Below, piece by piece: positions 2,642 through 58,269 of a stretch of DNA of 64,000 nt (positions are counted from its first letter, which is position 1; every line of letters starts with the position of its first letter). The notes under the pieces were generated by a model. The model worked only from the letters and a program-made list of their open reading frames with translations, made no database searches and was not told the origin of the DNA. The stretch spans positions 1 through 64,000 of IMG/VR virus record IMGVR_UViG_3300045243_000058; one strand, given 5' to 3'. The stretch comes from a virus. The translations under genes and the position numbers were made by a program.

Positions 2642-2663
2642 CCCCGACCCTCGCGGCGCGGCG

Positions 2664-3194: not shown

Positions 3195-3205
3195 AAGGAG
3201 ACTCA

Positions 3206-14552: not shown

Positions 14553-14746
14553 TGCGACTCGCCAATCAGACCCAGGAGGCCGCCCGCAGGCGCCCCAAGG
14601 GGAACGACGGACACCGCATGACCTTCTCGACCCGCATGGCCCGTGGCCCGAAAGAGCCCGCCGTCTTCCGCTGCGTCGGCTGCCGCGCCCTCGTCGACGC
14701 CGGGATGTACTGCGAGTCCTGCCTCAATGGCCCGGTCAGCCGCTAG
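14552..14746 (+). CDS. Zinc-ribbon protein before terminase, 64 aa
   Basis: ATG 14552 overlaps the upstream TGA by one base. The C-terminus reads FRCVGCRALVDAGMYCESC, a four-cysteine ribbon. It overlaps the large terminase start by 20 bases, so translation is likely linked. A small DNA-binding partner of packaging is possible but not shown. Confidence 0.5.
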   Translation: MRLANQTQEAARRRPKGNDGHRMTFSTRMARGPKEPAVFRCVGCRALVDAGMYCESCLNGPVSR

Positions 14747-16436
14747 CCAGGCCGCGCGCGAGCGACTCTCCCCGCAAGAGCAGGCGGACAAGACCCTCTT
14801 CGACAAGGACCCGTGGTGGGCCATCGAGCAGGGACTCGTCTGGACCGAGGACGAGCACGCCGCCGCCGGCGAGTCCGCGCGCAAGCAGTTCCCGAAGGAC
14901 GACTACCTGCGCACGATCGTCGAAATCTACATGAAGAGCGACATCGGCATCGTGATGAAAGCCCGCCAGTTGAAGATGACGTGGCTCTTCTGCTGGCTGT
15001 GGCTTCACGAGGCGATCACGAAGCCCGGATCCCTGTGCGTCCTCCAGGGGAAGCGGGAAGAGGACATCGTCGCGAAGGGGACGAAGGGGCTCATGGGCCG
15101 GGTTAAGTTCATGCGCCGGAACCTGCCGCCCCACCTGCAACCGCACATCCTCGACGAGCCGTCGAAGTCGACGGAGGTCTACTCGCACGACTTCGGCATG
15201 AGCTCGACCCTGATGGCGATCCCGCAGGGGGAAGACATCATCCGGTCGCTCACCGCGAGCCGGGTGTTCATGGACGAGCTGGCGTTCCACCCGAACGGCG
15301 AGCGCGCGTGGACCGCGGCGCTCCCGACCGTCCGGGGCGGCGGCAAGTTGTGGGGCGTGACCACCCCGAACGGTCGCGAGTTCTGCTACCTCCAGGCCGA
15401 CGACCGGCTGAAGTGGGAAAACTGGCGCGAGTGGCCGATGGCGATGGAAGGGCTCTACGGGTACACGAACACGAACAGCGTGCAGTTGCTCGCGCTCCAC
15501 TACACGGCGGACGCGGCGAAGCGTTCGTACGACTACCAGGACAACCTTCGGCGCGGGTACACGAACGTCAAGTACTACCGGCAGGAGAACGAGCTCGACT
15601 TCTCCGTCGAGGCGGGCGACCCCGTGTTCCCGGAGTTCACGCGCACGAGTCACCTCCTCAAGTCGCGGTACGTCGTCAACCCGATGGCGCCTATCTACCG
15701 CGGGTGGGACTTCGGGTACAACGGCCAGGCGTGCGTTTTCCTTCAGCACAACTCCCGCGGCCAACTCGTCTGGTTCGACACCGTGTTCTTCCAGGGCAAG
15801 GCGCTCTCCCTCGTCTGCCAGGAAGTCATCCGGCGCACGCTTCAGCACGCCGGACTCGCTCACGAGAAGGGGTACATGGAGGTCATCCCGCAGCCGCTTC
15901 GGGATCTCGAGGGGCACCCGATCGACAACATCCGCTTGGCGACGCCGGTCATCGGCGGGAGCGGGCTCCTCGTGTTTGACTACGGCGACCCGGCGGCCGA
16001 CGCGAAGAACCGGGAGGGCACGACCGACCGCGACACGCTGTCACGGTTCGGGATGCAGTTGATGACGAAGCCGACCCAGAACCGGAAGCGCGACATCATC
16101 GAACAGGTGCGCGACCTCCTCCTCCTCCGGAGCGACGGAGCGCCGGGTCTCCTCGTGTGCGAGGGCCCGAACGTCGAGCAGCGGTACTCGGTCTCCGGGT
16201 TCGAGGGCGGCTACCACTACCCGGAGAAGTACCAGGGCCGGGCCGACAAGATGCTGCCGCAGAAGGACGGGTTCTACGATCACATCTTCGACGCGCTCCA
16301 GTACTGCATCGACCACGTCAAGCCGATTCGCCCGGGCGTCGCCGGCGACGAGTCGGGAGACGGCGGCTGGAAGGCGACGGAGTGGTTCGACAACCCGCTC
16401 CAAGGTGGCGGTGACGGCGACGGGGTGATCCGGTGA
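14727..16436 (+). CDS. terL: Terminase large subunit
   Basis: A 569-residue protein starting at ATG 14727; the upstream extension is out-of-frame reading of the zinc protein. The ATPase half has the degenerate Walker A KARQLKMTW (78-86) and Walker B RVFMDELAF (D183, E184). The nuclease half has GWDFGYNGQACV (D328), FDYGDPAAD and a late HIFDALQY. Length and motif order fit TerL. It drives ATP-dependent DNA packaging into the prohead and cuts the concatemer. No small terminase is certain; the RHH-like or zinc genes just upstream are candidates. Confidence 0.9.
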   Translation: MARSAASQAARERLSPQEQADKTLFDKDPWWAIEQGLVWTEDEHAAAGESARKQFPKDDYLRTIVEIYMKSDIGIVMKARQLKMTWLFCWLWLHEAITKPGSLCVLQGKREEDIVAKGTKGLMGRVKFMRRNLPPHLQPHILDEPSKSTEVYSHDFGMSSTLMAIPQGEDIIRSLTASRVFMDELAFHPNGERAWTAALPTVRGGGKLWGVTTPNGREFCYLQADDRLKWENWREWPMAMEGLYGYTNTNSVQLLALHYTADAAKRSYDYQDNLRRGYTNVKYYRQENELDFSVEAGDPVFPEFTRTSHLLKSRYVVNPMAPIYRGWDFGYNGQACVFLQHNSRGQLVWFDTVFFQGKALSLVCQEVIRRTLQHAGLAHEKGYMEVIPQPLRDLEGHPIDNIRLATPVIGGSGLLVFDYGDPAADAKNREGTTDRDTLSRFGMQLMTKPTQNRKRDIIEQVRDLLLLRSDGAPGLLVCEGPNVEQRYSVSGFEGGYHYPEKYQGRADKMLPQKDGFYDHIFDALQYCIDHVKPIRPGVAGDESGDGGWKATEWFDNPLQGGGDGDGVIR

Positions 16437-22462: not shown

Positions 22463-23476
22463 ATGGGTGCCGTTGCCGACTCCTATACCTTGGGAGTATC
22501 GGGAGGGGCCTACATCGGCGCAGCGGTCCACGAGGACCTGCTCGACGTCGTCACCCTCCTGAGTCCGACCGACACGCCGCTCTTCACCATGATGCGCAAG
22601 ACGAAGGTGAAGAACGCCGAAGTCTCCTGGCTGGTCGACAAACTCCAGACCGCGTCCTCGAACGCGGTCGTCGAAGGATCGACCGCCGCCTTCAACACGA
22701 TCCAGGCCCGTGCCCGACTCACGAATTACGTCCAGACCTCGCGCCACGCCTACGAGGTCACGGACACCATGCGCGCGATCGACCCCGCCGGTATCCAGGA
22801 CGAGTTCCTGTACCAGATGGGGAAGGCCGCGAAGCAATGGAAGCGCGACGTCGAGTACGACATCGTGAACCAGAGCGCCTTCTCCGGCATCGGCGTCACC
22901 GGCGCCGGCACCGGGCAGGCGCGCTCCATCCAGGGCATCTACAACTGGCTGGTCCTCACCGCCGGCTCCGGGAACTCCAGCGGCGTCACCGGCTCGAACA
23001 CCGCGAACCTGATCCAGGAGGCGGACTTCAACGCCCGTCTCCAGGCTCTCTGGGTGAACGGCGGGATGGCCGACTACGTCGTCTGCACCCCGAACACCAA
23101 GGGGCAGGTGAGCTCCAACTTCTCCGGCTCGGCCAACAGCCGGCGCAACATCCCGATGACCGAGAACACGGTCATCAACGTGATCGACTACTACTTCTCG
23201 GACTTCGGGAACGTCAAGCTGCTCCCGCATCGCTGGTTCAGCTCGGCGGCTCCGACCGGGTCCGTGAACATCCAGAGGGCGACGCTCTTCCTCCAGTCGG
23301 ACATGTGGATGATCGGCATCCTCCGACCGCCGAAGAACGTCCCGCTCGCCAAGCTCGGGTCGTCCGAGCGGGCGATGATCGAGGGGGACTGGACGCTCAT
23401 CTGCCGGCACCCCTCGGCCAACGCGGCACTGACCGGACACGCTTCGGGCGTGGGGCCGAATCTCTCGACCTCGTAG
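22463..23476 (+). CDS. Major capsid protein (DUF5309/SU10-like)
   Basis: A 337-residue protein from ATG 22463 after GAGGAG. The N-terminus has VTLLSPTDTPLFTMMRKTKV, the hallmark loop of this capsid family, then VEGSTAAFNTIQARARLTNY and VQTSRHAYEVTDTM. The middle holds a segment predicted to form the spine helix (AAKQWKRDVEYDIVNQSAF), and the C-terminal P-domain ends near SSERAMIEGDWTL. Length is usual for the family. It forms the HK97-fold icosahedral shell. Its own promoter and terminator support high expression. Confidence 0.85.
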   Translation: MGAVADSYTLGVSGGAYIGAAVHEDLLDVVTLLSPTDTPLFTMMRKTKVKNAEVSWLVDKLQTASSNAVVEGSTAAFNTIQARARLTNYVQTSRHAYEVTDTMRAIDPAGIQDEFLYQMGKAAKQWKRDVEYDIVNQSAFSGIGVTGAGTGQARSIQGIYNWLVLTAGSGNSSGVTGSNTANLIQEADFNARLQALWVNGGMADYVVCTPNTKGQVSSNFSGSANSRRNIPMTENTVINVIDYYFSDFGNVKLLPHRWFSSAAPTGSVNIQRATLFLQSDMWMIGILRPPKNVPLAKLGSSERAMIEGDWTLICRHPSANAALTGHASGVGPNLSTS

Positions 23477-30413: not shown

Positions 30414-30653
30414 ATGGAGATTCAGGACGACGTGTTCCGCGAGATACTTCAAGCCGCAGGCTCCATCGCGATCGACCGGGAGCGCCTGAACGTGCGCCTT
30501 GTGTCGGCTCTCAACGATCTGGCCGCCGCGGCGAAGACGATCGAGGATCTCAAGGCCGAGCAGGAGAAGATCAGGGCCTCGATCGCCGAGACGACGCACG
30601 CTTACCAGGTGGAGACTTCACACCTTGAGGCCGTACCCGATCCCGGTCAGTGA
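30414..30653 (+). CDS. Coiled-coil small protein, 79 aa
   Basis: ATG 30414 after AAAGGGAGACC. One long helix (LNDLAAAAKTIEDLKAEQEK) with heptad spacing predicts a coiled coil. Its end overlaps the following tail gene by 29 bases. A virion trimerisation or chaperone role is possible. Confidence 0.5.
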   Translation: MEIQDDVFREILQAAGSIAIDRERLNVRLVSALNDLAAAAKTIEDLKAEQEKIRASIAETTHAYQVETSHLEAVPDPGQ

Positions 30654-32619
30654 AGGTTGCGAGTACGGCAAGCCGCCCGACACCATCAGCCGCGGCGCGC
30701 TGCGCATCGCTCGCAACTACTTCTACGAGCCGGAGAACCCCACCCTCGTCCAGTACCCGTGGCGCAGTCTGTTCGGCACCATGCAGAGCGGGAAGACGCC
30801 CGCCGGCCTGTCGGTCGTCCGCTTTCGGAGCGGGTCCCGGTTCCTCATGGGCGCCGCCGGCACGAAAATCGTACAGGCCCCGCTCGGCACCACGGGCACC
30901 TTTCAGGTGCTCAAGACCCTCACGCAGCAAGTCGGCCGGATGGACTTCGCGTACTACAACCTGACCGACCGGCTCTACATGACCGACGGCGTGAACCCTC
31001 CCCAGGTCTGGAACGGCGTCTCCGGGTCGACGCGCGACATGGGCCTCAACGCTCCCACGACCGCGATGACCTCGGCCCTCGTGAGCAACGCAGACACGAC
31101 CTATCAGGTCGGCGACACGTTCTCCTACGTCATGTCGGAGTACGACTCCGTGAACGTCGTCGAGAGCGGCCCCGGCCCGGTCATCGTCGTGTCGCTCACG
31201 ACCAACGGGCAGACCGTCCGCCTGAACCTCCCCGCGGCGCTCAACGTCGAGACGACCCACCTGAACATCTACCGGACGCAGGCGGGCGGGACCGTCTGGT
31301 ACTTCCTCGCGCGCGTGCCCATCGGAACGCTGCGCTACTACGACGGCCAGGACACCGAGGCGCTCGGAAACGGCAGCGACAACCTGACGCAGTACGGATT
31401 CGCGACTATGGACGACCTGTTCATCTCCGGGCGCCAGGTCATGCCCATGATCGGCGAGCCGCTCCAGAACAACTACGTCACCCAGAACGGCGTCCCGCCG
31501 TTGGGCGACATGGCGACGATCTTCCAGGATTGCCTCTGCATCTCCGGAGTCCCGGCGTTCCCGCAGCACATCTACTACAGCCTGCCGTTCCTGCCGGAGT
31601 CCTTCTCTCCGGTCTACTTCCTCGCCGAGGAGAACGACCAGGGAGACCCGGTCACCGGCATGTGCGTCGCGAACGACCGCTTCCTCGCCTTCTGCAACAA
31701 CAGCGTGTGGCGCCACGACCGCCTGCCATTCGTGAACGACCCCGGGTTCGGTACCGGGTCGGCGACCCGGAGCCGCGTCGCGAACGACCACGGCTCCATC
31801 GCCAAGCGCGCCGTCTGCTCCTACAGCGTCGGGTTTCCCAACGACCGGGCGTTCTACCTGAGCAACCGCGGGCCGTACTCGACGGACGGCTACGTCACGG
31901 TGCCGCTCGGCGGAGACCTCAACTGGGACAAGGCGAAGATCAACTTCTCGGCCATCTCAGGGGCGGTCGCGGTCGCGTGGCCGAAGTACCGCATCGTCAT
32001 CCTGTGCCTGCCGAGTCCGTCGTCTTCGGTCAACGACTTCGCGCTCATCTACCACTACGACCCACGGCACGCGAAGCGCGGCACGGGCGTCGGTAAGTGG
32101 ACGGGGCCGATCGACTTGCGCGCCGTCGCCATGGCGGTCAGCCACGACGCGGACACCGAGACGCGCCTCTACACCGCCGACAGCCGGGCGAATGGTCAGG
32201 TCTACCTCGAGGACAACGGAGACCACGACGCGGCGCAGACGCTCAACTCCGCGGGCGACATCCTTGCCGAGTGGGAAACCGGCGACCAAGTCGTCGGCGG
32301 CCGTAGCAGCCAGAACTTCCTCGGCAACGTCTACGTCAGCATGGCGGACACGAACGACACGAATCCGACTCTCCTCGCGACGGTGAACCGGAACGACGAC
32401 GAGTGGGAACTCCCGATGGAGAACCTGACGCCGAACCAGGCGTCCCTTGAGGGCCTCGGGACGTCGTCGGTCTCGCGTGACAAGGGGCGCACGCTCGTCG
32501 CTGGAATCTGGGAAATGGCGTCGGAAGTCCGGCTGCACATGAAGGAAACGAGCCACGGCACGCGGCGCCGCGTCGTTGACGTCGAGTGCGAGGCGGAGCC
32601 TCGGGGGCGGCGGAAGTGA
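30625..32619 (+). CDS. Large tail/stem virion protein
   Basis: A 664-residue protein. TTG 30625 is taken as start, since GGTGGAG lies ahead and no closer ATG or GTG is suitable; it overlaps the coiled-coil gene. The protein is beta-rich with repeated aromatic strands and has a late DLRAVAMAVSHDADTETRLY. Composition and size fit stabilisation or stem proteins of podovirus tails (gp10-like). Likely part of the tail nozzle. Confidence 0.55.
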   Translation: MRPYPIPVSEGCEYGKPPDTISRGALRIARNYFYEPENPTLVQYPWRSLFGTMQSGKTPAGLSVVRFRSGSRFLMGAAGTKIVQAPLGTTGTFQVLKTLTQQVGRMDFAYYNLTDRLYMTDGVNPPQVWNGVSGSTRDMGLNAPTTAMTSALVSNADTTYQVGDTFSYVMSEYDSVNVVESGPGPVIVVSLTTNGQTVRLNLPAALNVETTHLNIYRTQAGGTVWYFLARVPIGTLRYYDGQDTEALGNGSDNLTQYGFATMDDLFISGRQVMPMIGEPLQNNYVTQNGVPPLGDMATIFQDCLCISGVPAFPQHIYYSLPFLPESFSPVYFLAEENDQGDPVTGMCVANDRFLAFCNNSVWRHDRLPFVNDPGFGTGSATRSRVANDHGSIAKRAVCSYSVGFPNDRAFYLSNRGPYSTDGYVTVPLGGDLNWDKAKINFSAISGAVAVAWPKYRIVILCLPSPSSSVNDFALIYHYDPRHAKRGTGVGKWTGPIDLRAVAMAVSHDADTETRLYTADSRANGQVYLEDNGDHDAAQTLNSAGDILAEWETGDQVVGGRSSQNFLGNVYVSMADTNDTNPTLLATVNRNDDEWELPMENLTPNQASLEGLGTSSVSRDKGRTLVAGIWEMASEVRLHMKETSHGTRRRVVDVECEAEPRGRRK

Positions 32620-34807: not shown

Positions 34808-35992
34808 ATGGCCTTGAGGCCCGTCGCTCCTCCGCCCTACGCCGCGCCGCCGCCGGTCGACCCGATGAACGCCGGGATGAACGCGCCGCCGCAGGGGCCG
34901 CCTCCGCCTCCCTATATGCCCGGGAGCGGCCAGCCCCCGTGGGCGCCGAACGTGAACGTCGCTCCGCCTCCTCCGCCGCCTTCCCCGGGCGGGGCAGCCC
35001 CCGACTACTCACAGCCGGGCGGTGAGGCACCGTTCGGCGGCACGCCGTACTGGTCGGGCGTGATGCGCAACTACATCGACATGATCACGAAGCCGCAGGC
35101 GACCCCGCGGCCCGCGCCGCTCGACAACTCCCAGATCGCCGCGTACATGCTCAACCCTGGGATGCGCGGCGAGCTGATGAACATGTACAACACGCCGTAC
35201 CAGGCGGCCATCGCGCAGGCGCGCAGCCATGAGGAGATGATCGGCCACGGGCTCACCGGGGCCGCCCACATGCTCTCGGCCGCCGGCGAGTACGAGCAGC
35301 GCCAGCACGAGGACGCGCGCGAGACGGCGCAGCGAAACTACTCCTCGGCGAAGACGGCCGCGGAGTCCGGGGACGTCACGTTCGACTACAAGGCGGCGGG
35401 CGCGCCGGAACTCTATTCGGTCGCGCAACAGCGGGCCCAGATGTTCGGGACCATCCACAACCCGGAGACCAAGCCGCAGGTCGAGGAGCGGAACCGGAAG
35501 GAGTGGTACGGGCGCCTCGACAAACTCCAGTCCCAGTTGAACGACATCCAAGCGGCGCGCGACAAGCTCCAGTCGAACCCGAACCTGGCGTTCCTCCTCG
35601 ACCCCGAGAAGCGCAAGGGCAACGCGGGCTACGGGACGGCGAGCAACCTTGAGAAGTCGATCAACGACCGGAGCGCCCAGCTCGACCAGCAGGAAGCCGA
35701 CATCCGTAAGGAGATGGACGCGCTCAGGACGATGTCTCCGGCGCTCGGCCCGCACGGCGAGCCGTCGACCTTCGAGCGGTACAACAAGATGTCGGGGCCG
35801 GAGCAGGAGCAATACGTTCAGAAGCGCGCGACCGTGATCCAGACGCTCAAGGCGCGCCCGCAGCGTCCCGGCCAGCCCTCCGACTACGAATTGTTCTCCA
35901 AGCTGTCGCCCGACCAGCAGGACGCCTTCGTCGAGCAGTTCGTGAAGGGACAGGAGGCGCGCCGGTCCTACGCCACGGCAGCGAGCCCCTGA
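34808..35992 (+). CDS. Internal virion protein, coiled-coil
   Basis: A 394-residue protein from ATG 34808. The first 80 residues are Pro-rich. The rest is helical and charged, with QSQLNDIQAARDKLQSNPN and SINDRSAQLDQQEADIRKEM, typical of core proteins. The stop overlaps the giant gene's start by one base. The inferred role is ejection into the periplasm or cytoplasm together with DNA. Confidence 0.6.
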   Translation: MALRPVAPPPYAAPPPVDPMNAGMNAPPQGPPPPPYMPGSGQPPWAPNVNVAPPPPPPSPGGAAPDYSQPGGEAPFGGTPYWSGVMRNYIDMITKPQATPRPAPLDNSQIAAYMLNPGMRGELMNMYNTPYQAAIAQARSHEEMIGHGLTGAAHMLSAAGEYEQRQHEDARETAQRNYSSAKTAAESGDVTFDYKAAGAPELYSVAQQRAQMFGTIHNPETKPQVEERNRKEWYGRLDKLQSQLNDIQAARDKLQSNPNLAFLLDPEKRKGNAGYGTASNLEKSINDRSAQLDQQEADIRKEMDALRTMSPALGPHGEPSTFERYNKMSGPEQEQYVQKRATVIQTLKARPQRPGQPSDYELFSKLSPDQQDAFVEQFVKGQEARRSYATAASP

Positions 35993-38900
35993 TGCCGCCG
36001 GAGGCGCCGAGCGCGTACGACGAGCTCCTCCGCCGGTACGGAATGGACCAGCCGTCGTCATCGGCGCCGTCCGCCGGGCCCGGCCCGGCCGATCACTCCT
36101 CCCTAGAAGCGCAGAACGGCCTGCCGCCCGGCCTCCTGGACGCAGTAGCGCAACAGGAGTCCGGAGGGAACCCGAACGCCGTGTCGAAGGCCGGCGCTGT
36201 CGGCAAGTTCCAGTTCATGCCCGCCACAGCGCGCGCCTACGGGCTGCGGGTCGACGCCGGCGCCGACGAGCGCCGAGACCCCGTCAAGAGCGCCGCCGCT
36301 GCGGCCCTCCTCCTCGGTGACCTGCACCGTCGGTTCAGCGGGCGCACCGACCTCGCGCTCGCGGCCTACAACGCCGGGCCGGGCGCCGTGAAGGACGCCG
36401 GGAACGCCGTGCCCGACTTCCCCGAGACCCAGAACTACGTCCGGTCGATCATGGGGAAGATGGGCGCGAGCGCGGCACCCGCCGACACCGGGGCGATGGA
36501 CGAACTCATGCGCCGCTACGGTCTCTCCGGCGACCAGGATATGCCAGCGCCGGCGGCGCCCGACACGACTGGCGCTCCCGCGCCGCCTCCGAGCGCCGCG
36601 CCGGCCGCTCCGGCGCCGCAGATACCCGGCACCGGCGGCTACCAGTTCCCGGCCGCGGGCATGGTGGCGCAGGGGCCGGGCGGCGACATCGCCTTCCCGC
36701 CGTCCGCGCGCGCTCCGCAAGGCGAGGTCCAGGTGCCCCCGAAGTCGGCGACCGACGCAGAGGAACGGCAGCGACAACTGGCCGACTGGTGGGAGGGCGG
36801 CGGTAAGGCCATGAGCCCGCAGCAGATCGCCGCGCTCGGCCCAGAGTACCAGGCGTTCTACGAGGAAACGACCGGGAAACGACCGACGATGGGCGCGCCG
36901 CCATCCGAGTTCCAGATGACCGGCGCGCAGCTTGCGCAGTCGACCGGAGAGCAGGCGTACGCCGGGTTCGCCGGCGCCGTGGCACCGTACGTCCCGAACA
37001 TCCCCGGGGCCGACGTCGTGAAGTGGCAGCGCGAGGTCGGCGCGTCCGGGCCGATCGGGGTCGCCGCCGGCGCCGCGGGGGCCATCGCCGGGTACTCGAC
37101 GCCGACTCCGCTCCCGGTTGCGGCGCGGACGGTCGGGAAACTCGCCTCCGAGATGCTCATCGGCCGCGGCGCTATCGAGATGGCCGACAAGGCGAAGCAG
37201 GCGCTCTTCGAGGACTCCCTCGACGCGCTCCTCAACGGAGAGCACGGTCCGAAGGTGGTCCGTGCCGCGCAGGCGGCGCGCGCCGCAGCGATGGACGCCG
37301 GGGCCTCCGTGGAGGACGCGGCGACTGCCGGGACCAACGCCGCCCACGACTACATCACCGCCAACGTCGCCCCCACGGCCCAGAGGTTCGCCGACGCGAT
37401 GGGCGACCAGCTCCTCAAGGGGATGTCCGGAAGCGCCCGCGTGTGGGCGGCCCGCAATCTCCTCGACCCGGCCGCGGCCGGCCTGACCGCCGGAGGCATT
37501 GAGTCGGCGACCGGCCTCGCGACCGGAGAGGTGAAGCCGGAAGACCTCCCGGACCACCTCGTCGGGACGTCGCTCGGGTTCCTCGTCGCGCACCTCGGAT
37601 GGAAGGGCGTCAGCGCCGCCATGCGCAATCTCGGGCTCACAGAGGGTGACGTGATCTGGAAGGCGCGCAACGGCAAGGAGTTGAGCGACGACGAGAAGGA
37701 CATGCTCAACCGCCTCGTCCAGCGGGTGCGCGCCGGAAGCCAAGGCCCGGGCCGGTCGGAGTACCCGCAGGCGGCCATCGCCGGCACGCCGCCGCAGGCG
37801 CCGGGCGGCCCGGTGGCGCCCGGCGAGGCGCTCGAGCGCAGCGGTCAGGCGCAGGCGCTCGCTGACATTCTCCAGCCGGCCCGGGACGCTCGCGCGGCCG
37901 AAGCGTCCGATGCCGCCGCGCGCGCGGCGCGCGCCGCCGACAAGCAGGCCCGGGAAGCCTCCGTCGCCGCGGCACGGGCGCAGGACGTCTCGGGCGCGAT
38001 GGCCCCCCTCCAGGAGCGCGCGAAGTTCTACGTGGAACAGGGGTTGCTCTCTGCGGAGGAAGTGCAGAGCATGGGGTCTCCTGACGCCCTGTCGCGCCTC
38101 CTCGACGTAGCGCAGAACCGTCGGGCCGAGGAGGAGCAACGGAAGCTCGCCACGTTGGCTCAGGGCGCGCGATTGTCCGGAACGGGACTCGTGACTCGCA
38201 TCCCCGCCACGGAGCCGCAGGCCGCCCCCGTAGCGCCACAGCCGGAGCCGCCTCCGCCGGCGCCGGCGCCGCCGGAATCGGTCCCGGAGCGGTACATCCC
38301 CGGACAGCGGGATCGGTTCTGGGTGCAGAGCATCCTCGCGCGCGCGCCGAACGTGAACGAGGCGGTCAAGATGGCGCAGGAGCGCATCGGTGCGCAGCCG
38401 GGGCTCGACGACTACGTCCGGGCGCGCTGGAACGACAAGTTCCAGGCCGGCCAGAAGGAGCAGGCGACTCGAGACCTGATTCGGCAGGCGAATCAGTCCG
38501 AGCAGGCGCGCCTCCAGCGCGGCGAGAACCGGGCGAAGGTCGCGCGCGACATCGCCGACCGCCTGGCGAGCGACCAGAAGATCAAGGAGAAGCAGCAGTT
38601 GGCGAACGCGGGGCGTGAGGTCCCCACTGAGATCGGCCACGCGCAAGACGTGTCGGCCTTCCACGACCTCCTCGGCCCGGAGACACCACCTGCCGCCACA
38701 CCGGCCCCTGCCCCGACGGAACCGACCGTCGCGGCACCTTCCCCCGCGGCGTCCACGGGGCAGGAGCCGGCGAACGCCGCGCCAGTCGCTCCATCGACTG
38801 GATCCATAAATGCGGGGAAAAAGTCCTTGACTCCGAAGCGCACGAAGGAGCAGCAGTCCTATGTCGACGCTCTCGGGGACGCCATCGGCCACTGGGGGAA

Positions 38901-41900
38901 GATGCTCATCGACCACGTCGGCGCGGTGCGCATCGACACCCAGAAGGCCATCGCGAAGACCGGCCCGCGCGACACCACGACGTTCGACCTGCACCCCGAC
39001 ACCATCAAGGTCCTGAACGACACGCGTCTCGGGATGGTCAAGGGCCTCATCGTGAACAGCGACGGCGTCCCGATCGACGAGGCGGCGGACGCGATGGCGC
39101 GCCTCGGGTTCGCCGGCGGCGACCGGGCACACGCGAAGAAGGAACTCCTCGGCCTGATCCAGAAGATCGCCGGAGACGCGAGCGCCGGTCGCTACAGCGA
39201 CGTGAAGGACCGGATGAAGTGGGGCAAGGCGATGGAAGACGTCGGCGGGGCGATGATCCAGCCGGTCGCCGGCGGAGACCTGAAAGTCGGCCAGGAGTTC
39301 ACGACGCACGACGGCACCAACTGGACCGTCACGAGCACGAAGCCCGGGGCCATCACCGTCGAGAGCACGACGGGCGGGAAGAAGGTCAAGGTCGACGAGT
39401 TCGACAAGATCCCGACCATCGGCGGGGTGAGCGGGCCGTCCTCGTTCGGTGAACAGCGCGGCGCCTACGTCGCTGGCGGGAAGACGATTCAGGCGTTGCA
39501 GGCGCGCTCCTACCTCGTGCGCGAGCCGGCCGGCGCAGACTGGAAGACGGCGAGCGACAAGTTGAAGGGCGTGCTGATTCGCATCGGCGCGTACCACATG
39601 CGCCGCGGCGCCGTGGACCTCGCCGGTCTCGAGAAGGCGATGGTCGGGGAACTCGGCCCGCGAGCGCAGGCTTTCGTCCCGGGCGTCTTTGGTGTACTGT
39701 CCAAGATGCCGGCCTTCGCAAAGCCGGCGGCGCAGGCGGCGGGTGCCCCGGCGGTCAGCGTGTCGTCTCCAGGCGGCGCGGGCTCAACGGTGGCGGCTCC
39801 CTCCCCACCGGCAGTCACCGGGGCACCCGCCGCGAAGCCAGGAGGCACCGATGTCGGAACTCAGCCTGTACGACCTGTCGCAGGCGTCGGAAGACCCGGA
39901 GGAGCAGAAGCAGGGCAAGGTGTACATGCCCCCGGGCCCGGAGGACGAACGAGTCCTCGGGGAGATGTTGCGGCGCCTCCGGCCGAAACTCCTCCAGCGA
40001 AAGCGCCAAAGGCCGCCAAGCCCGAGGAAGTAGCACCGACCCGCACCCTCCGCCCCGGCGGCGTCGCGACCATCTCAAAGGAACTCCTGCCCCGACTCGA
40101 ACCCGAGTGGAAGTCACTCTACGACCGTCTCGCCGCGCCCGAAGGGCTCGACAAGATGGCGAAGATGTTCGGGATGCGCCCGCTCGAGCACCAGGTCGAG
40201 AACCTCGTGCGCATCCTCCGGTCGCTCAAGGCCGACCGCGCGCCCGTGCTCGCGGACGGGACGGGCACCGGGAAGACCCTCTCGGCCGTCATGGTCATCA
40301 ACGAGCACCTGCTCGCCAACCCGCACAGCCGGCAACTCGTCGTCCTGCCGAACGCGGAGATCAAGAGACAGTGGGAGAAGACGCTCAAGCGGGCCGGCAT
40401 CAATTCGCACTACGTCGAGGAAGCCTTCTCGACGAAGCCGATGACGGTCAACTTCATGACCTACCATCGCCTCGGGATCTGGGGACGCGAGAAGCGGATC
40501 GGTCTCATCGAGGGGTTCAACCCCGACCTCATCACCTTCGACGAGGCGCACCGGCTCCGGAACTTCTTCACGGGTGACACGGCCTGGGCACGCATCGGCG
40601 AGGAAATCTCCCGCGCGCCCTACTCGAAGAAGGCGCTCTTCCTATCCGCGACGCCGTTCCAGTCCTTCCTGCACACCAAGTACCTGACGCGCACGCAACT
40701 CTGGGATCCGAAGCAGGCGTGGCCCGACTGGCTGTACCAGAACTTCGGCATCTACAAGGACAAGGACGGGTCGTGGAACGGCGCGTCGCCGAAGTCGCTG
40801 CGGAAGATTCACGAGTCGATGTACCGCTCCGGCGTGCTCCTGAAACACGAGGTCGACTTCAAGGGCCTCAAGAACTCGAAGGGCGAGACGATCACGTACG
40901 CCTCGGAGAACCGCATGGTCTCGGGGTCGCAGGAGCACGTCGCGCAGCAGGCGAAGTACACGAACCTGTTCCAGACGGTCATCGCGGGCCTGATGGAAGA
41001 CCCTGCGAAGAACCGCCGGAACATCATGATCGTCAAGGGCGTCCAGCACCTCTTCAACCGATCGATGGACGAGATCGAGAAGGTGCGCGGCGTCATCGAC
41101 ACGGCGCGCGCCGACCTGGCCGCCGGCAAGAGCGTCATCTTCATGCTCCTGCGGAAGAACGAGACGTCCGCGGAACAGTGGTACGCCGACTGGGAGGCCG
41201 GGAAGCGCGAGTACAAGAAGGGCTCGTACATGCCGGACCTCCTGAAGGTCATGCGCGACCACGAGGTTTCCGTGCCGAGCCCCATGGAGACGCTGCGGAC
41301 GGCCTTCCCGCAGGCGACGTTCATCACGGGTGACCAACCGAGCGGTGGCGGCGCGCGCGCGTCGAGCATCGACGAGTTCCAGTCCGGGCGCGCAAAGGTC
41401 GCCGTCGTCACGATGGCCGCCGGCGCCGAGGGGCTCGACCTCCAGGACCGCATCGGCGCGCACCCGCGGTCGATGTACGTCCTGAGCGTCCCGTACACGG
41501 CAGGGGAGACGGCGCAGGTCGCCGGGCGCCCGTTCCGCCTCGGGAGCGAGTCGAGCGCGAGCGTCACCTGGCTCTATACCGACTCGGCGCAGGACGTGAG
41601 ACAGGCGAAGCTCGTCGCCAACCGCATCCGCGAGATGGGCGCGCTCATCAAGGGCGAGGTCGAGAGCCCGGGCGCGGACGAGATCGAAAAGTTCAACTTC
41701 CCCGAGCTCGACCAGCAGCGCATGAAGCAGGTCGACTCCACGGTCGGCCCGAACCACGTCCCGGTCACGCTCGAGGACATGCAGTACCTCGACATGGAGC
41801 CGGACGGCGACTTCAACGTCGGCGAGAACCGGCAGCGGTACAAGACGACCGCGGGCGAGCAGGGCACTCTGTTTCAGACGCCGCAACAGGTCCGGTACGC

Positions 41901-44900
41901 GAGCGAGAGCGCCAAGCGCGCAGGCGCCATCCTGTCGCAGGACAGCGCCCTCTGGAACCGGCTCAAGGCGACGGGCGAGACGCTCCCGATCTACGGAGCG
42001 ACGCTCGAAAGCCCGGCCGACGTCGCGAAGATGTTTCAGTTCCTCGAGGACCGCGGGCAGGAGAACGTCTACCTCCTGCTCACCAAGGGCGACACTCCCA
42101 TTGGTGTCGTGCACCACGCCATCGGTGGCAAGAGCCACGCGACCGTCATCCCGCCGATCCTCTTGGCGCAGGTCAAGGCAAGCGGCGCCGACGGCCTGCA
42201 CCTCGTCCACAATCACCCGAGCCAAGACCCGACCCTGAGCGACGACGACGTCAGGCTCGCGGAGAACTTGGCGGGCCTCCTTCGCGAAATCGGCGTGACC
42301 GTGCGGAGCGCCATAGCCACGGACATCGATCGCTTCGGGTACGTGAACACCGGGAACGGTGAGTTCCGCAAGCAGATACTCCACCGCGGAGAGATGGGCA
42401 GCCCCGTCGGGCAGGTCGCCATGATGGCGCTCCACACTGAGCGTGCGCGACCGGAGAAGGGCGACTACCTGAGCAACCCGCCGAAGGCCGTCATGGCGTG
42501 GCACGCCATCGTCACCGACCGCGCGTCACCGAAGACGGCGTTCCTCCTCCTCAACAAGGACCGGCGGGTCACCGGCCACGTCCTCGTTGCAGGCGATTTC
42601 AAGGAACTCATCGAGTCGCCAGACAACCGCGAGACCATCGCGGCTCTGAGCAACTTTCTGGCGGCGGCGGCGCACAACGAGGTGGCCGTCGTCAGCAACT
42701 CCATCGCCGGCCGTCGCTGGAGCGCGGAAGAGGCGCGCGCGGGCGCATCCGACACGCTGCGCGCCTACGGAGAACTGGCGCGGTCGTATCTCGGGAATCG
42801 CTCCGACATGCTCGACTTCATCCACGTCCTCAAGAACGAGGCGGGGGATGTCGCGGCGTTCTCCTACCGCGGCGACATGGCGGTCGAGAAGGCCAAGGCG
42901 AAGAAGTTCGAGGTCTCGGAGAACAAGCCCGGGCGCGGCCTCGGTGGCCTCCCGGCCCGCAGCGAAATCGTCAAGCAGGCGGAAGAGATCCTCGGGACGG
43001 CGATCCGGTACAAGCGCATGGGCAAGACGCCGAAGGCGGTGCGCGGGTTCTACCAGCCGGTCGGCGGGAACATCAGGATTCGGCGCCCGCTCCAGATGGA
43101 CACGATCTTCCACGAACTCGGGCACCGTCTCGACCACCTTGTCTTCGGCCAGCAGGGACCGAATCTCGGAAGCGTACAGGCGCTCCGCCGGTTCCGCGCC
43201 GAACTGCTCCCGCTTGCGACGATCCCGGGCCCGGGTCAGGACGCGCTCCCCGAGGCGTTCGCCGAGTTCATGAAGCACTACGTCATGGACCCCGCGAAGG
43301 CCGCGCGCGTCGCGCCGACGTTCTACCCGTACTTCGAGACCTTCATGCAGAGCGCCAAGGACACCAAGGTCCTGCACGAAGGCATCCTCGCGCTCCGGGA
43401 CCTGATGGGCGAGTGGCGCACGGGCGACAAGTGGGACCGGATGGGAAGCAGCATCGTGAGCGGCGAGATGCCGTTCCACCACTTCCAGCACGAGGCGACC
43501 TGGCGCCACCTCTACTCGTACACGTTCGACCAACTCCACTTCCTCCGGTGGGCGCAAGGGAAGATTGAGGCGCTCGCGGACGGCGCGCCGCTCCGCCCGG
43601 ACCAGAACCTCAAGGTCCTCGCGACCACGATCACCGGCCGCATGGGGATCGCCGAGGTCATGGTCAACCACGGGATGACGACGTTCGGGAACCCGGAGCG
43701 CCGCGTCGGTCCCTCTCTGCGCGAGATCGCCGAGTCGGTCGGGAGCAAGTGGCCGAAGTACGAGTCGTACGTCAAGGCGCTCAGGACGCTCTACCTGATG
43801 AACCGCGACAAGATGGGCGCGAAGGAGTTCATCGGCGACTACGTCACCGACGACGACGTGCGCGGCATCGTGCGGGACGGAAAGGCCGACTTCCTCCATA
43901 CCTACGGTCTCCAGAAGCAGTACAGCACGGGGCTGCTGCGCTACTACTTCGGGGCGGGGATGCTCACCGAGAAGGGCATCGCGGACATTGAGGCGCACAA
44001 CCTCGTCTACTCGCCGTTCCAGCGGCTCATGGACCCGGAGGAGTTGTCGCGCCCGGGCGGCGGCGCCGGCACGGGCGGCCGGATGGCGAGCCTGTACCGG
44101 GGGCTCTACAAGTTGACCGGGAGCCAGAGGGAGACGTTCCCGGCGCTCGAATCGCTCCTTCGCATGACGCACACGATGGTCGACCGGGCGGAGAAGAACG
44201 CGGTCGTCGTCGCGCTTCTCGATCAGTCCAAGAACCTCAAGGACGCCGGCGTGCACCTCGCCGAGTGGGTCCCCGAGGAGAAGGTGCCTATCGAACTGCG
44301 CGTCGGGACGATCGCCTCGCGGCTCCGTCAGGAACTGGGCATCAAGATCCCCGGCCTGACCCAGGATCAGATGGACGAGTACCTGACCCTGTTCATGCCG
44401 TCGACGAGCTTGCCGAAGCCGCCCTACGTCTGGGCGTGGAAGAACGGGGTCCGCCGGTACGCCTGGATCAACCCGGACGTCTACGACGCCCTCATGAGCC
44501 TCGAGCGCGACCAGCTCCCATGGTTCCTGTCGTGGATGAAGGCCGGCCCGACTCTCGTGCGTGGCGGTGCCGTCGTGCTCAACCCGGGGTTCTGGGGATG
44601 GAACGAGGCCCGCAAACTCGCGACGGTCATTGTGCAGAGCCACCAGCCGTGGAAGAACCTCATGTACGTCCCGACCTCGTTCATCGACGGGCTCCTGAAG
44701 ACCGAGCGGTATCACAAGTACATGGTGACCGGGGCGGCCTACGCGACATTCGTGCGCCAGACCCAGGACGGGGTCGCCGAGGCCGTGCGCCGGATGGTGG
44801 CCGCGCGCGCTCACCCGGTCGCCTTCTACTCGAATCCGGTGAACGCCATCCGTGGCATCTACTCGCTCGCCGGTCGCGTGCTCGCCGCGTCGGACATGGC

Positions 44901-46059
44901 GCCGCGCATCGCAGAGGCGCGCGTCCTCGGCCTCGACCAGGCGCAGGGGCGCGCCGATCTTCTGCCGATCGGCGCCGCCGCGGCGGACGTGACGCTCGAT
45001 TACCGGCGGGTCGGGTCGAAGCTGAAGACGCTCTCCGGGGTGACCGCCTTCCTGACCGCGCACATGCAGGCCATCGACCGGCCGGTGCGCTTCGCGAAGG
45101 ACCATCCGGCGCGCGCCGCTGGCGTCGCCGTCGCCGCGTTCCTCCTCGGGATCACGTACTACATGATGAACCGGGAGAAGAAGCAGTACCAGGACGAGGC
45201 GCAGGAGAACAAGGATCTCTACTGGTATTTCTATCCCAGCGACGAGGCGGACGACGCCGGCTTCCGGCTCCCGAAGCCCTACGCTTACGGCTGGTTCGCG
45301 ACCGCGGCGGAGCGGACGATGGAGTCGATGGAGAAGCACCAGCCGGAGATGTTCCGCCAGTTCGCCGAGGACTTCGGGCGCGGCATGACACCCAACTTCG
45401 TGCCGACGATGCTCCAGCCACCCCTCGAAGTCCTGATGAACCGGAGCCTGAACACCGGCCGGAAGGTGCAACCCGACACGGGGCTTCCGCAGGAGCGCCG
45501 CTGGCCGTGGACGACAGAGAGCGCGGTCGACATCGCCCGCGCGATATCGAGCGAGGGCGCCGGCGTCAGCGGCCCGGTCATCGAACACCTCGCCGGCGGC
45601 CTGACCGGCGGCCTCGGGATGGACGCGCTCCGACTGTCCGACAAGTACATCCTCGGGGTCCAACCGAAGCGTCCGTCGTACCTGGCGGACGAGCCGGTCA
45701 TCGGGCGCTTCTTCTCGCGGCAGCCGAACTTCTCGACGGACGCGGTACGCCGGTTCTACGAGGCGTGGGGGCCCGCGTCCGACGCCTACGCGAGCCAGTC
45801 CCAGGCGCGCGCCGAAGGGACGCAGGCGGTCATGGACTTCGAGAAGGCGTACGGGCACACCGGCGGCCATCTGCTACAGCGGTACTTCGAGATGCAGGGA
45901 GCGCACGCGGCGCTCGCGGCGGCGTGGAAGGAACTCGACCACCTCGACCAGGAGAACCTGAGCGACGAACAAAGGAAGGATCGGGAAGCGGCGATTGCCC
46001 GTAGAATTACGTGGGCAGCGAACATGGGTCTCGCGGCGATACGAAAGGCGCCGCAGTAG
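35992..46059 (+). CDS. Giant polyvalent ejection protein (SLT, helicase, JAMM, zincin, LPD38)
   Basis: A 3355-residue protein, the largest gene here. Residues 40-155 are a lytic transglycosylase domain (E56 in QQESGG, AYNAGPG at 125-131). Residues about 1380-1900 are an SF2/Snf2-type helicase: Walker A DGTGTGKT (K1428), DEAH (1517-1520), SAT (1552-1554) and QVAGRPFRLG (1842-1851). Near 2073-2086, HNHPSQDPTLSDDD is a RadC/JAMM metal site. HELGH (2374-2378) with EAFAE (2421-2425) is a zincin. About 2850-3150 resembles LPD38 with a membrane segment near 3044-3060. Long Ala/Pro linkers join them. Such polyvalent proteins are known in phages and conjugative elements and are thought to be delivered with DNA to act on host defence and the cell wall. 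Confidence 0.85.
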   Translation: MPPEAPSAYDELLRRYGMDQPSSSAPSAGPGPADHSSLEAQNGLPPGLLDAVAQQESGGNPNAVSKAGAVGKFQFMPATARAYGLRVDAGADERRDPVKSAAAAALLLGDLHRRFSGRTDLALAAYNAGPGAVKDAGNAVPDFPETQNYVRSIMGKMGASAAPADTGAMDELMRRYGLSGDQDMPAPAAPDTTGAPAPPPSAAPAAPAPQIPGTGGYQFPAAGMVAQGPGGDIAFPPSARAPQGEVQVPPKSATDAEERQRQLADWWEGGGKAMSPQQIAALGPEYQAFYEETTGKRPTMGAPPSEFQMTGAQLAQSTGEQAYAGFAGAVAPYVPNIPGADVVKWQREVGASGPIGVAAGAAGAIAGYSTPTPLPVAARTVGKLASEMLIGRGAIEMADKAKQALFEDSLDALLNGEHGPKVVRAAQAARAAAMDAGASVEDAATAGTNAAHDYITANVAPTAQRFADAMGDQLLKGMSGSARVWAARNLLDPAAAGLTAGGIESATGLATGEVKPEDLPDHLVGTSLGFLVAHLGWKGVSAAMRNLGLTEGDVIWKARNGKELSDDEKDMLNRLVQRVRAGSQGPGRSEYPQAAIAGTPPQAPGGPVAPGEALERSGQAQALADILQPARDARAAEASDAAARAARAADKQAREASVAAARAQDVSGAMAPLQERAKFYVEQGLLSAEEVQSMGSPDALSRLLDVAQNRRAEEEQRKLATLAQGARLSGTGLVTRIPATEPQAAPVAPQPEPPPPAPAPPESVPERYIPGQRDRFWVQSILARAPNVNEAVKMAQERIGAQPGLDDYVRARWNDKFQAGQKEQATRDLIRQANQSEQARLQRGENRAKVARDIADRLASDQKIKEKQQLANAGREVPTEIGHAQDVSAFHDLLGPETPPAATPAPAPTEPTVAAPSPAASTGQEPANAAPVAPSTGSINAGKKSLTPKRTKEQQSYVDALGDAIGHWGKMLIDHVGAVRIDTQKAIAKTGPRDTTTFDLHPDTIKVLNDTRLGMVKGLIVNSDGVPIDEAADAMARLGFAGGDRAHAKKELLGLIQKIAGDASAGRYSDVKDRMKWGKAMEDVGGAMIQPVAGGDLKVGQEFTTHDGTNWTVTSTKPGAITVESTTGGKKVKVDEFDKIPTIGGVSGPSSFGEQRGAYVAGGKTIQALQARSYLVREPAGADWKTASDKLKGVLIRIGAYHMRRGAVDLAGLEKAMVGELGPRAQAFVPGVFGVLSKMPAFAKPAAQAAGAPAVSVSSPGGAGSTVAAPSPPAVTGAPAAKPGGTDVGTQPVRPVAGVGRPGGAEAGQGVHAPGPGGRTSPRGDVAAPPAETPPAKAPKAAKPEEVAPTRTLRPGGVATISKELLPRLEPEWKSLYDRLAAPEGLDKMAKMFGMRPLEHQVENLVRILRSLKADRAPVLADGTGTGKTLSAVMVINEHLLANPHSRQLVVLPNAEIKRQWEKTLKRAGINSHYVEEAFSTKPMTVNFMTYHRLGIWGREKRIGLIEGFNPDLITFDEAHRLRNFFTGDTAWARIGEEISRAPYSKKALFLSATPFQSFLHTKYLTRTQLWDPKQAWPDWLYQNFGIYKDKDGSWNGASPKSLRKIHESMYRSGVLLKHEVDFKGLKNSKGETITYASENRMVSGSQEHVAQQAKYTNLFQTVIAGLMEDPAKNRRNIMIVKGVQHLFNRSMDEIEKVRGVIDTARADLAAGKSVIFMLLRKNETSAEQWYADWEAGKREYKKGSYMPDLLKVMRDHEVSVPSPMETLRTAFPQATFITGDQPSGGGARASSIDEFQSGRAKVAVVTMAAGAEGLDLQDRIGAHPRSMYVLSVPYTAGETAQVAGRPFRLGSESSASVTWLYTDSAQDVRQAKLVANRIREMGALIKGEVESPGADEIEKFNFPELDQQRMKQVDSTVGPNHVPVTLEDMQYLDMEPDGDFNVGENRQRYKTTAGEQGTLFQTPQQVRYASESAKRAGAILSQDSALWNRLKATGETLPIYGATLESPADVAKMFQFLEDRGQENVYLLLTKGDTPIGVVHHAIGGKSHATVIPPILLAQVKASGADGLHLVHNHPSQDPTLSDDDVRLAENLAGLLREIGVTVRSAIATDIDRFGYVNTGNGEFRKQILHRGEMGSPVGQVAMMALHTERARPEKGDYLSNPPKAVMAWHAIVTDRASPKTAFLLLNKDRRVTGHVLVAGDFKELIESPDNRETIAALSNFLAAAAHNEVAVVSNSIAGRRWSAEEARAGASDTLRAYGELARSYLGNRSDMLDFIHVLKNEAGDVAAFSYRGDMAVEKAKAKKFEVSENKPGRGLGGLPARSEIVKQAEEILGTAIRYKRMGKTPKAVRGFYQPVGGNIRIRRPLQMDTIFHELGHRLDHLVFGQQGPNLGSVQALRRFRAELLPLATIPGPGQDALPEAFAEFMKHYVMDPAKAARVAPTFYPYFETFMQSAKDTKVLHEGILALRDLMGEWRTGDKWDRMGSSIVSGEMPFHHFQHEATWRHLYSYTFDQLHFLRWAQGKIEALADGAPLRPDQNLKVLATTITGRMGIAEVMVNHGMTTFGNPERRVGPSLREIAESVGSKWPKYESYVKALRTLYLMNRDKMGAKEFIGDYVTDDDVRGIVRDGKADFLHTYGLQKQYSTGLLRYYFGAGMLTEKGIADIEAHNLVYSPFQRLMDPEELSRPGGGAGTGGRMASLYRGLYKLTGSQRETFPALESLLRMTHTMVDRAEKNAVVVALLDQSKNLKDAGVHLAEWVPEEKVPIELRVGTIASRLRQELGIKIPGLTQDQMDEYLTLFMPSTSLPKPPYVWAWKNGVRRYAWINPDVYDALMSLERDQLPWFLSWMKAGPTLVRGGAVVLNPGFWGWNEARKLATVIVQSHQPWKNLMYVPTSFIDGLLKTERYHKYMVTGAAYATFVRQTQDGVAEAVRRMVAARAHPVAFYSNPVNAIRGIYSLAGRVLAASDMAPRIAEARVLGLDQAQGRADLLPIGAAAADVTLDYRRVGSKLKTLSGVTAFLTAHMQAIDRPVRFAKDHPARAAGVAVAAFLLGITYYMMNREKKQYQDEAQENKDLYWYFYPSDEADDAGFRLPKPYAYGWFATAAERTMESMEKHQPEMFRQFAEDFGRGMTPNFVPTMLQPPLEVLMNRSLNTGRKVQPDTGLPQERRWPWTTESAVDIARAISSEGAGVSGPVIEHLAGGLTGGLGMDALRLSDKYILGVQPKRPSYLADEPVIGRFFSRQPNFSTDAVRRFYEAWGPASDAYASQSQARAEGTQAVMDFEKAYGHTGGHLLQRYFEMQGAHAALAAAWKELDHLDQENLSDEQRKDREAAIARRITWAANMGLAAIRKAPQ

Positions 46060-50470: not shown

Positions 50471-50545
50471 ACCTGGGTGGAGCAATGGTAGCTCGTCGCG
50501 TTCATACCGCGAAGGCTGCGGGTTCAAGTCCCGCCCCAGGCACCA
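50471..50545 (+). tRNA. tRNA with CAU anticodon (Met or Ile2)
   Basis: A full cloverleaf can be folded. The acceptor is ACCTGGG/CCCAGGC with one A-C mismatch at position 1-72, the D-stem is GAGC/GCTC, and the anticodon stem is TCGCG/CGCGA with loop TTCATAC (CAT at 50503-50505). The T-stem is GCGGG/CCCGC with TTCAAGT, and the encoded end is ACCA. The CAU anticodon reads Met, or Ile AUA if C34 becomes lysidine. The anticodon stem lacks the three GC pairs of initiators. Confidence 0.9.
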
Positions 50546-52263: not shown

Positions 52264-52512
52264 ATGACGCGCCGTGAACTGATCCTCTGGGTGCTCCTGA
52301 TCAGCGTGTTCACGATGGGGGCCTTCTGGGGCAACTCCATCACGATGTACAAGTCCGGTCGCATCTCGTTCACTCCCGGAGCGAACCGCATGTCGATCCC
52401 GCAGTGCCCTGCGGGATACGCCGGGATGGAGAATGGGACGATATGCTTTGACTACACCGCCGTGAAGCCGGTCTTCGTCATCAAGGACGCGAACGGCCCG
52501 AGGTCACTCTGA
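52264..52512 (+). CDS. Membrane-anchored small protein, 82 aa
   Basis: ATG 52264 after AGGAGGCC. Residues 6-25 are hydrophobic (LILWVLLISVFTMGAFW). The mature part has CPAGYAGMENGTICFD, a disulphide-like pair. Coupled to the following beta-helix gene by a one-base overlap. Confidence 0.5.
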   Translation: MTRRELILWVLLISVFTMGAFWGNSITMYKSGRISFTPGANRMSIPQCPAGYAGMENGTICFDYTAVKPVFVIKDANGPRSL

Positions 52513-54755: not shown

Positions 54756-54765
54756 GGTGACGACG

Positions 54766-58029: not shown

Positions 58030-58269
58030 ATGGTCATCTCGAAAATTCTTGAGGCGGTGTCCGATCTGACGATGTGGCAACTCGCGCATCTGGATCGCCT
58101 AGTAATCACGAAAAGGTCGGGTCGCTTTGTCGTCAGTTCCAAGATGAAGAAGAAGTTCCGTAACCCGTACAGGAAAAATGGCGCCGGATGCACCCTCCCA
58201 GAACGCGGAAGGATCGATAGGTCGGAAGGTATCTTTTGCGCAACGCATGATCTCAAGGAGCCGAAATGA
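58030..58269 (+). CDS. Small basic protein, 79 aa
   Basis: ATG 58030 is taken because the in-frame sequence before it, from GTG 57880, is low-complexity and fully covered by stems. The product has a helical start (ISKILEAVSDLTMWQLAHLD), a basic middle (KMKKKFRNPYRKN) and Cys residues near the end. It overlaps the next start by 4 bases. Family unknown. Confidence 0.45.
   Translation: MVISKILEAVSDLTMWQLAHLDRLVITKRSGRFVVSSKMKKKFRNPYRKNGAGCTLPERGRIDRSEGIFCATHDLKEPK

What the first reader, a model, noticed from the sequence alone, without database searches (positions are those of the whole stretch)
35992..46059. Giant ejected polyvalent protein with five enzyme-like domains
One 3355-residue chain carries a lytic transglycosylase (E56), an SF2/Snf2 helicase with full motifs, a RadC/JAMM site (HNHPS...DDD), a zincin (HELGH with EAFAE) and an LPD38-like C-terminus with a membrane segment. 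Motifs are read directly. Polyvalent proteins of this kind are known and thought to be injected with DNA. The specific order, and a helicase plus JAMM plus zincin in an ejection protein, is a rich and possibly novel combination that could act on cell wall, DNA entry and host defence.
Basis: partly seen in the sequence, partly recalled or inferred. Interest (0 to 1): 0.85.

Follow-up and report, generated by a model that had tools for sequence, protein, structure and literature searches.

The report
Giant multi-enzyme phage injection protein
A bacterial virus carries one very large protein that joins a cell-wall-cutting enzyme, a DNA motor, a RadC-type zinc domain and a zinc protease to a tail end shared with known virus-particle proteins; such multi-tool proteins are already known, but the pairing of an intact RadC domain with an apparently dead copy of the same fold, seen here and in many other giant virus proteins, seems not to have been described.

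Summary
ORF 35992-46059 (+, 3355 aa) is a real gene of a 65 kb phage genome; a 60%-identical protein with the same domain order lies in a related phage contig. It carries an SLT transglycosylase, a SNF2/Strawberry-notch-type ATPase, a RadC/JAMM domain with all motif residues, a gluzincin (HELGH + PEAFAEF) and LPD38. Zincin + C-terminal module recurs in 13 other viral contigs behind swapped cargo; RadC occurs in about 50 giant viral ORFs. What differs: the ATPase lacks the usual adenine-methylase partner; RadC stands there instead. What is new: the ~150 residues after RadC model as a second RadC fold without JAMM ligands (all significant fold matches are RadC 2QLC), a JAMM(+)/JAMM(-) tandem like MPN+/MPN- pairs; such a region follows RadC in 31 of 51 loci. 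In the window, sequence alone does not show this; it rests on the model and the family profile. Verdict: new variant of a known kind.

The parts
35992..46059 (+). Giant polyvalent protein, 3355 aa (whole ORF)
36106..36417 (+). SLT lytic transglycosylase domain, res 39-142 (catalytic Glu56)
   Evidence: Pfam PF01464 E=2e-28; PDB matches incl. T7 gp16; Glu56 conserved in relative
36487..40041 (+). Long spacer, res 166-1350; parts of it Ala/Pro/Gly-rich (166-340, 1241-1350); no domain found
40057..41886 (+). SF2 ATPase of the SNF2/Strawberry-notch type, res 1356-1965 (Walker A 1421-1429, DEAH 1517-1520, SATPF 1552-1556, QVAGRPFRLG 1842-1851); no methyltransferase attached
41959..42381 (+). RadC/JAMM domain, res 1990-2130; Glu2024, His2073, His2075, Ser2083, Asp2086
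   Evidence: Pfam RadC E=2e-10; profile of 5 viral copies hits RadC 2QLC E=1e-9; motif conserved in 57-58 of 58 sequences
42439..42891 (+). RadC-like fold without metal ligands (pseudo-RadC), res ~2150-2300
   Evidence: AF2 model, core pLDDT 81-91, pTM 0.72; top 5 PDB fold matches all RadC 2QLC, E 2.5e-5 to 2.9e-4; family profile vs RadC 87-92%; not significant from the window sequence alone
42949..43416 (+). Gluzincin-type metallopeptidase domain, res 2320-2475 (HELGH 2374-2378; PEAFAEF 2420-2426)
   Evidence: motifs invariant in 13 homologues; weak profile match to LF/PPEP zincins
43498..46011 (+). C-terminal module res 2503-3340 containing LPD38 (res 3064-3218, nt 45181-45645) and one weak hydrophobic segment (res ~3041-3060)
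   Evidence: Pfam LPD38 E=3e-23; module HMM and BLAST hits in phage giant proteins; fold matches to viral LPD-annotated proteins (low-confidence model)
34808..35992 (+). Upstream gene (394 aa, no family) overlapping the giant ORF by one base (TGATG)
14643..16436 (+). Terminase large subunit (context)
   Evidence: PHROG 2 E=9e-25
22463..23476 (+). Major capsid protein (context; 82% identical in the related phage)
   Evidence: PHROG 1328 E=7e-72
30499..32619 (+). Internal-virion/structural-like protein (context)
   Evidence: PHROG 511 E=1e-8 and 3287 E=2e-7

Best explanation
This is a virion-internal ('ejection') polyvalent protein of a podophage-like virus. Inferred course: it is made late and packaged through its conserved C-terminal part (zincin + LPD38 module). 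At infection it leaves the particle with the DNA. The N-terminal SLT domain opens the peptidoglycan. The rest reaches the cytoplasm, where the zincin may cut the chain to free the enzyme domains. There the SNF2-type ATPase tracks along the entering double-stranded DNA and presents the RadC/JAMM domain, probably regulated by its catalytically dead RadC-like partner as MPN+ enzymes are by MPN- partners, which removes or cuts a host defence factor (or a modified end) at the DNA. Shown here: coding status, domain identities, JAMM and zincin residues, RadC-fold model of the partner, shared C-terminal module, absence of a methylase signature. Inferred: packaging, ejection, self-cleavage, target of RadC.
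For: Domain searches and conservation. Position in the late gene block after terminase and capsid, same strand, directly behind a gene it overlaps. Zincin + C-terminal module shared with 13 other viral contigs (some near-copies; L019 is cut by its contig end inside the module) behind different N-terminal cargo: none, methylase, methylase + SNF2/Sno helicase. C-terminal module also in Shewanella X14, Thalassomonas BA3, PTXU04, ARM81mr (annotated virion structural protein), CF418P1 and a Pelagibacter phage. JC1 gp69 (LT, methylase/SNF2, LPD3, LPD38; 4515 aa) found in CsCl-purified virions with 51 unique peptides (PMC9144972). P1 DarB is a head protein believed to enter the cell (PMC9024508). Partner domain. 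Evolution: zincin and C-terminus are highly conserved (70%, 67%; dN/dS about 0.4), RadC (48%) and its partner (35%, dN/dS about 1) least, as expected if RadC/partner face a changing host target.
Against: No proteomics on this uncultivated phage. The 1054-residue zincin + C-terminus model is poor (mean pLDDT 58.5) and had no significant PDB match. In the window itself RadC and the partner show no sequence similarity above shuffles (score 27 vs mean 27.5), profile probability only 1.6%, and an X profile built without the two relatives does not find it; the claim rests on the fold model and on other family members, and the model used an alignment of those same members. High dN/dS of the partner may be relaxed constraint. 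The biochemical role of RadC was not settled in anything I read.
Confidence: 0.55

Rival explanations
1. RadC acts on DNA rather than on protein: with the SNF2 motor it forms an end- or junction-processing enzyme that readies the entering genome (circularisation, recombination), as Iyer et al. propose for polyvalent RadC domains.
For: Iyer et al. argue RadC lacks the groove for ubiquitin tails and is more likely nucleic-acid processing (PMC5512222). The phage carries other DNA-processing genes (exonuclease and SbcC-like). RadC sits next to a DNA motor here, where other family members have a DNA methylase.
Against: I found no established nuclease activity for the JAMM fold; the JAMM motif is complete and the next fold neighbours of the partner are deubiquitinases and their partners, at weak E-values. 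RadC also occurs in giant ORFs without a DEAH helicase motif.
Confidence: 0.3
2. DarB-like antirestriction protein that simply lost or outsourced its methylase: the ATPase alone protects entering DNA, and RadC/zincin are accessory.
For: SNF2-type ATPases of polyvalent proteins are strongly associated with an adenine methylase (PMC5512222); Skulduggery gp28, whose helicase matches and which also has an SLT domain, has helicase + methylase.
Against: No methylase motif or Pfam hit in the protein; the one Pfam-supported methyltransferase among the genes scanned (12507-13178) is Methyltransf_24, not a DNA-adenine type.
Confidence: 0.15
3. Not ejected: a late scaffold or tail protein that stays outside or is consumed during assembly.
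For: No virion data for this phage; SLT domains also occur in tail tape-measure proteins of other phages.
Against: The LPD38 giant protein of the comparable phage JC1 is a virion protein; upstream genes include an internal-virion-like protein.
Confidence: 0.1
4. The post-RadC region is not a RadC-like domain but an unrelated alpha/beta domain, so there is no JAMM(+)/JAMM(-) tandem.
For: Window sequence alone gives chance-level similarity; TM-scores to 2QLC are moderate (0.56-0.63 on the target).
Against: The five significant fold matches out of 350,542 chains are all RadC, and further JAMM/MPN proteins (BRCC36/KIAA0157, PfJAMM1, EMC8, RPN8-RPN11) come next, though at E 0.04-0.25; family profile 87-92% while control profiles give at most 0.3%.
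Confidence: 0.25

Closest known systems
Burkholderia phage JC1 gp69 / Bcep22 gp75 (DarB-like, Lessievirus)
   Same: Podophage late operon; giant protein; N-terminal LT domain, SNF2-type helicase, C-terminal LPD38; in virions by MS for JC1 (PMC9144972).
   Different: Has a methylase-helicase (YtxK/COG4646) and LPD3; no RadC listed; 4515 aa.
Polyvalent proteins (Iyer et al. 2017, PMC5512222)
   Same: Every domain type here (lysozyme-like, SWI2/SNF2, RadC, zincin MPTase, LPD38) is named there; late phage context.
   Different: They present SNF2 as coupled to adenine methylase-LPD36; the passages I read describe no dead RadC-like partner.
Pseudomonas phage Skulduggery gp28
   Same: SLT at N-terminus and the best-identity helicase match in named phages (31% over 170 residues).
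   Different: Methylase after the helicase, LPD39 instead of LPD38, no RadC motif.
Shewanella X14 / Thalassomonas BA3 giant proteins
   Same: Zincin followed by the same C-terminal LPD38 module (about 23% identity over ~950-1030 aa).
   Different: Methylase-like cargo; no helicase or RadC motif; X14 has no SLT hit.
T7 gp16 ejection protein
   Same: N-terminal SLT domain in a large internal virion protein.
   Different: Similarity limited to the SLT region.
MPN+/MPN- pairs (BRCC36-KIAA0157, RPN11-RPN8)
   Same: A metal-competent JAMM domain beside a ligand-less copy of the fold; KIAA0157/Abraxas are essential for BRCC36 activity (PMC4579573 abstract).
   Different: Separate eukaryotic subunits acting on ubiquitin; here one viral chain, target unknown.

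Membership tests
Polyvalent proteins (Iyer 2017) | Several domains of unrelated biochemical activity in one chain | tested here: met
Polyvalent proteins (Iyer 2017) | Encoded among late/structural phage genes | tested here: met
Polyvalent proteins (Iyer 2017) | Packaged and delivered into the host with DNA | not testable with these tools
   only by analogy to JC1 gp69 and P1 DarB
DarB-like methylase-helicase | SNF2-type ATPase | tested here: met
DarB-like methylase-helicase | Adenine methyltransferase in the same protein | tested here: not met
   no Pfam hit up to E=1, no [ND]PP[YFW] motif
RadC/JAMM | E-xn-HxH-x7-S-x2-D motif | tested here: met
   E2024, H2073, H2075, S2083, D2086; motif definition PMC300881 abstract
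RadC/JAMM | RadC fold | tested here: met
   by sequence profile only: 2QLC E=1e-9
RadC-like partner (X) | RadC fold without metal ligands | tested here: inconclusive
   model supports; window sequence alone does not
Gluzincin metallopeptidase | HExxH plus downstream Glu in a conserved helix | tested here: met
Gluzincin metallopeptidase | Zincin fold | tested here: inconclusive
   profile E=0.002 to LF type; no significant fold match
LPD38 virion-type C-terminus | Pfam LPD38 above cut-off | tested here: met
   83 bits vs cut-off 27
T7 gp16-type ejection protein | Homology beyond the SLT domain | tested here: not met

The most novel reading that the evidence does not exclude
Giant virus proteins widely carry a built-in JAMM(+)/JAMM(-) tandem: an intact RadC domain followed (starting about 42-105 residues after its HNHPS motif) by a ligand-less RadC-fold partner, injected as a regulated enzyme module against host defence. 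In this phage the module stands where relatives carry a DNA methylase.
Probability: 0.4. Interest if true: 0.65.

Novelty: new variant of a known kind. Interest (0 to 1): 0.45.

Why it matters
It separates what is conserved in these ejection proteins (zincin plus LPD38 tail, probably packaging and processing) from what is swapped (the cargo). It also gives a testable reason why RadC, a domain whose function is disputed, is common in giant phage proteins: it may work as an active/inactive JAMM pair. If so, the pair could be expressed alone and tested for protein or nucleic-acid substrates.

Tried and rejected
Missing JAMM glutamate: I first took the Glu of the strand after the first hairpin of RadC as catalytic and thought it lost; alignment to 2QLC and 57 other sequences shows the invariant Glu is 2024 ('QEN'), so the motif is complete. 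A His at 2042, shared by half of the viral copies, is left unexplained. Within-window RadC repeat by sequence: chance level. An apparent strong RadC-partner match in L061 is a 26-residue repeat beyond the partner, not homology of the partner. Whole C-terminus fold: model too poor, no PDB match. Close relatives in bacterial genomes: none found with the patterns used. Membership in the DarB family: rejected, no methylase. Uniqueness of helicase + RadC + HExxH: rejected, L054, L055, L060 and L084 carry all three motifs. Bcep22 itself could not be fetched under the accession tried, so JC1 is cited from its paper.

Full report
WHAT IS THERE. The window is bases 1-64000 of a 65,152-base virus record. 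The reading frame 35992-46059 (+) is open for 3355 codons, has the codon-position GC pattern of the neighbouring genes (0.68/0.48/0.90) and starts one base inside the stop of the preceding gene (TGATG). A scan of IMG/VR with the major capsid protein found one related phage contig, IMGVR_UViG_3300010401_000038 (64,488 bases, capsid 82% identical). It encodes a 3387-aa protein, 60% identical over its length. Overall dN/dS between the two is about 0.46. So the gene is real and constrained.

DOMAINS. Pfam-A finds SLT (39-142), SF2 ATPase hits in both lobes (ResIII/AAA_34/DEAD 1396-1579; Helicase_C_4 1794-1903), RadC (2006-2104) and LPD38 (3064-3218); the relative gives the same set. PHROGs agree for the transglycosylase and the helicase. 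The zincin is not in Pfam's reach, but across 13 homologues the residues H, E, H of HExxH and P, E, F, A, E, F of PExFAEF never change, and a profile of them weakly matches lethal-factor/Pro-Pro-endopeptidase zincins (best E=0.002). Iyer et al. connected a polyvalent zincin to the same type (PMC5512222). RadC is secure: a profile of five viral copies hits the RadC structure 2QLC with E=1e-9, and Glu2024, His2073, His2075, Ser2083, Asp2086 are conserved in 57-58 of 58 aligned copies.

Residues ~2150-2300 follow RadC. Similar regions follow RadC in other giant viral ORFs: an HMM seeded from eight of them is found downstream of RadC in 31 of 51 loci (seven of these were seeds). A profile of the family aligns to RadC with 92% probability including the window pair, 87-89% without it; unrelated control profiles give at most 0.3%. 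An AlphaFold2 model of the window's own stretch, with 23 family members as alignment, has core pLDDT 81-91 and pTM 0.72. Foldseek against 350,542 PDB chains returns RadC 2QLC as the only matches below E=0.001 (five chains, E 2.5e-5 to 2.9e-4, TM 0.56-0.63 on the target), followed, at E 0.04-0.25, mostly by BRCC36-KIAA0157, PfJAMM1, EMC8 and RPN8-RPN11 entries. The motif search lists no H[NS]HP[SN] in these stretches. The limits are plain: in the window, sequence similarity between RadC and this stretch is at chance, and an HMM made without the window pair does not find it. I therefore call it a probable RadC-like fold without ligands.

SURROUNDINGS. Terminase (14643-16436), major capsid protein (22463-23476) and an internal-virion-like protein (30499-32619) lie upstream on the same strand. 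Two further genes of 388 and 394 aa without recognised family precede the giant gene.

RELATIVES. Against 50,697 phage records, residues 1340-3355 match 36 records. In the best-covered ones, from Vibrio, Shewanella and Thalassomonas phages, the match is zincin + C-terminus; most others match the C-terminus only, and a few match the helicase. A scan with conserved zincin-region peptides gave 14 loci: the known relative and 13 others, some near-copies of each other. Their ORFs carry HExxH followed by the C-terminal module; L019 is truncated by its contig end inside the module. Their N-terminal cargo differs: none, methylase, methylase + Strawberry-notch helicase, methylase + SNF2. In the helicase-bearing ones that were scanned (L024, L026, L027) a methylase signature, some of it weak, is also present; in the window RadC + partner stands instead. 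Scanning for RadC gave 51 loci, all in large ORFs (968-5976 aa, some cut by the contig), eight with two RadC motifs. Four of those loci other than the relative combine DEAH helicase, RadC and an HExxH motif in one ORF (L054, L055, L060, L084; the first three alike). Nothing but the relative shares the SLT-to-LPD38 order.

HOW IT PROBABLY WORKS. JC1 gp69, with transglycosylase, methylase/SNF2, LPD3 and LPD38, was identified in CsCl-purified virions with 51 unique peptides (PMC9144972). P1 DarB is packaged in the head and believed to enter the cell (PMC9024508). By this analogy the present protein is packaged and ejected. SLT would open the wall; the zincin may process the chain; the ATPase would move on entering DNA; RadC with its dead partner would act there. 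Between the two relatives SLT, helicase, zincin and C-terminus are 65-70% identical, RadC 48%, the partner 35% with dN/dS about 1: either a host-facing, fast-changing part or relaxed constraint. Whether RadC cuts protein or nucleic acid is open; Iyer et al. favour nucleic acids or nucleotides.

VERDICT. Observation confirmed. Kind already known, specific architecture new, RadC/partner tandem the new point worth testing.

Noticed in passing
L036-L086 (51 IMG/VR loci): All RadC domains found by the scan lie in large viral ORFs of 968 to 5976 aa; eight loci carry two RadC motifs in one chain, mostly each followed by the partner-like region.
   Followed up: partly
window res 2042 (nt 42115-42117) and alignment: A histidine is shared at this position by 29 of 58 RadC copies, where 2QLC has Ile; not one of the JAMM residues. 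Unexplained.
   Followed up: no
25324-27330 (+): 668-aa protein with two different glycosyltransferase domains (GT2-like and GT1-like) among the structural genes.
   Followed up: no
59949-62968 (+): Exonuclease followed by an SbcC-like ATPase gene, overlapping by a few bases.
   Followed up: no
58266-59459 (+): Recombination-directionality-factor-like Gp3 family protein (PF18897, E=1.5e-28).
   Followed up: no
52512-57474 (+): Two large ORFs (747 and 937 aa), overlapping by 95 bases, without any PHROG or Pfam match.
   Followed up: no
9151-11106 (-): Primase/helicase-like protein on the opposite strand, with AAA_25 domain.
   Followed up: no
50471-50545 (+): tRNA-Met (CAT) gene.
   Followed up: no
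L061 ORF, RadC N-terminus and a stretch about 270 residues downstream: A 26-residue stretch at the RadC N-terminus is repeated after the partner region, perhaps a remnant of a further RadC copy.
   Followed up: no
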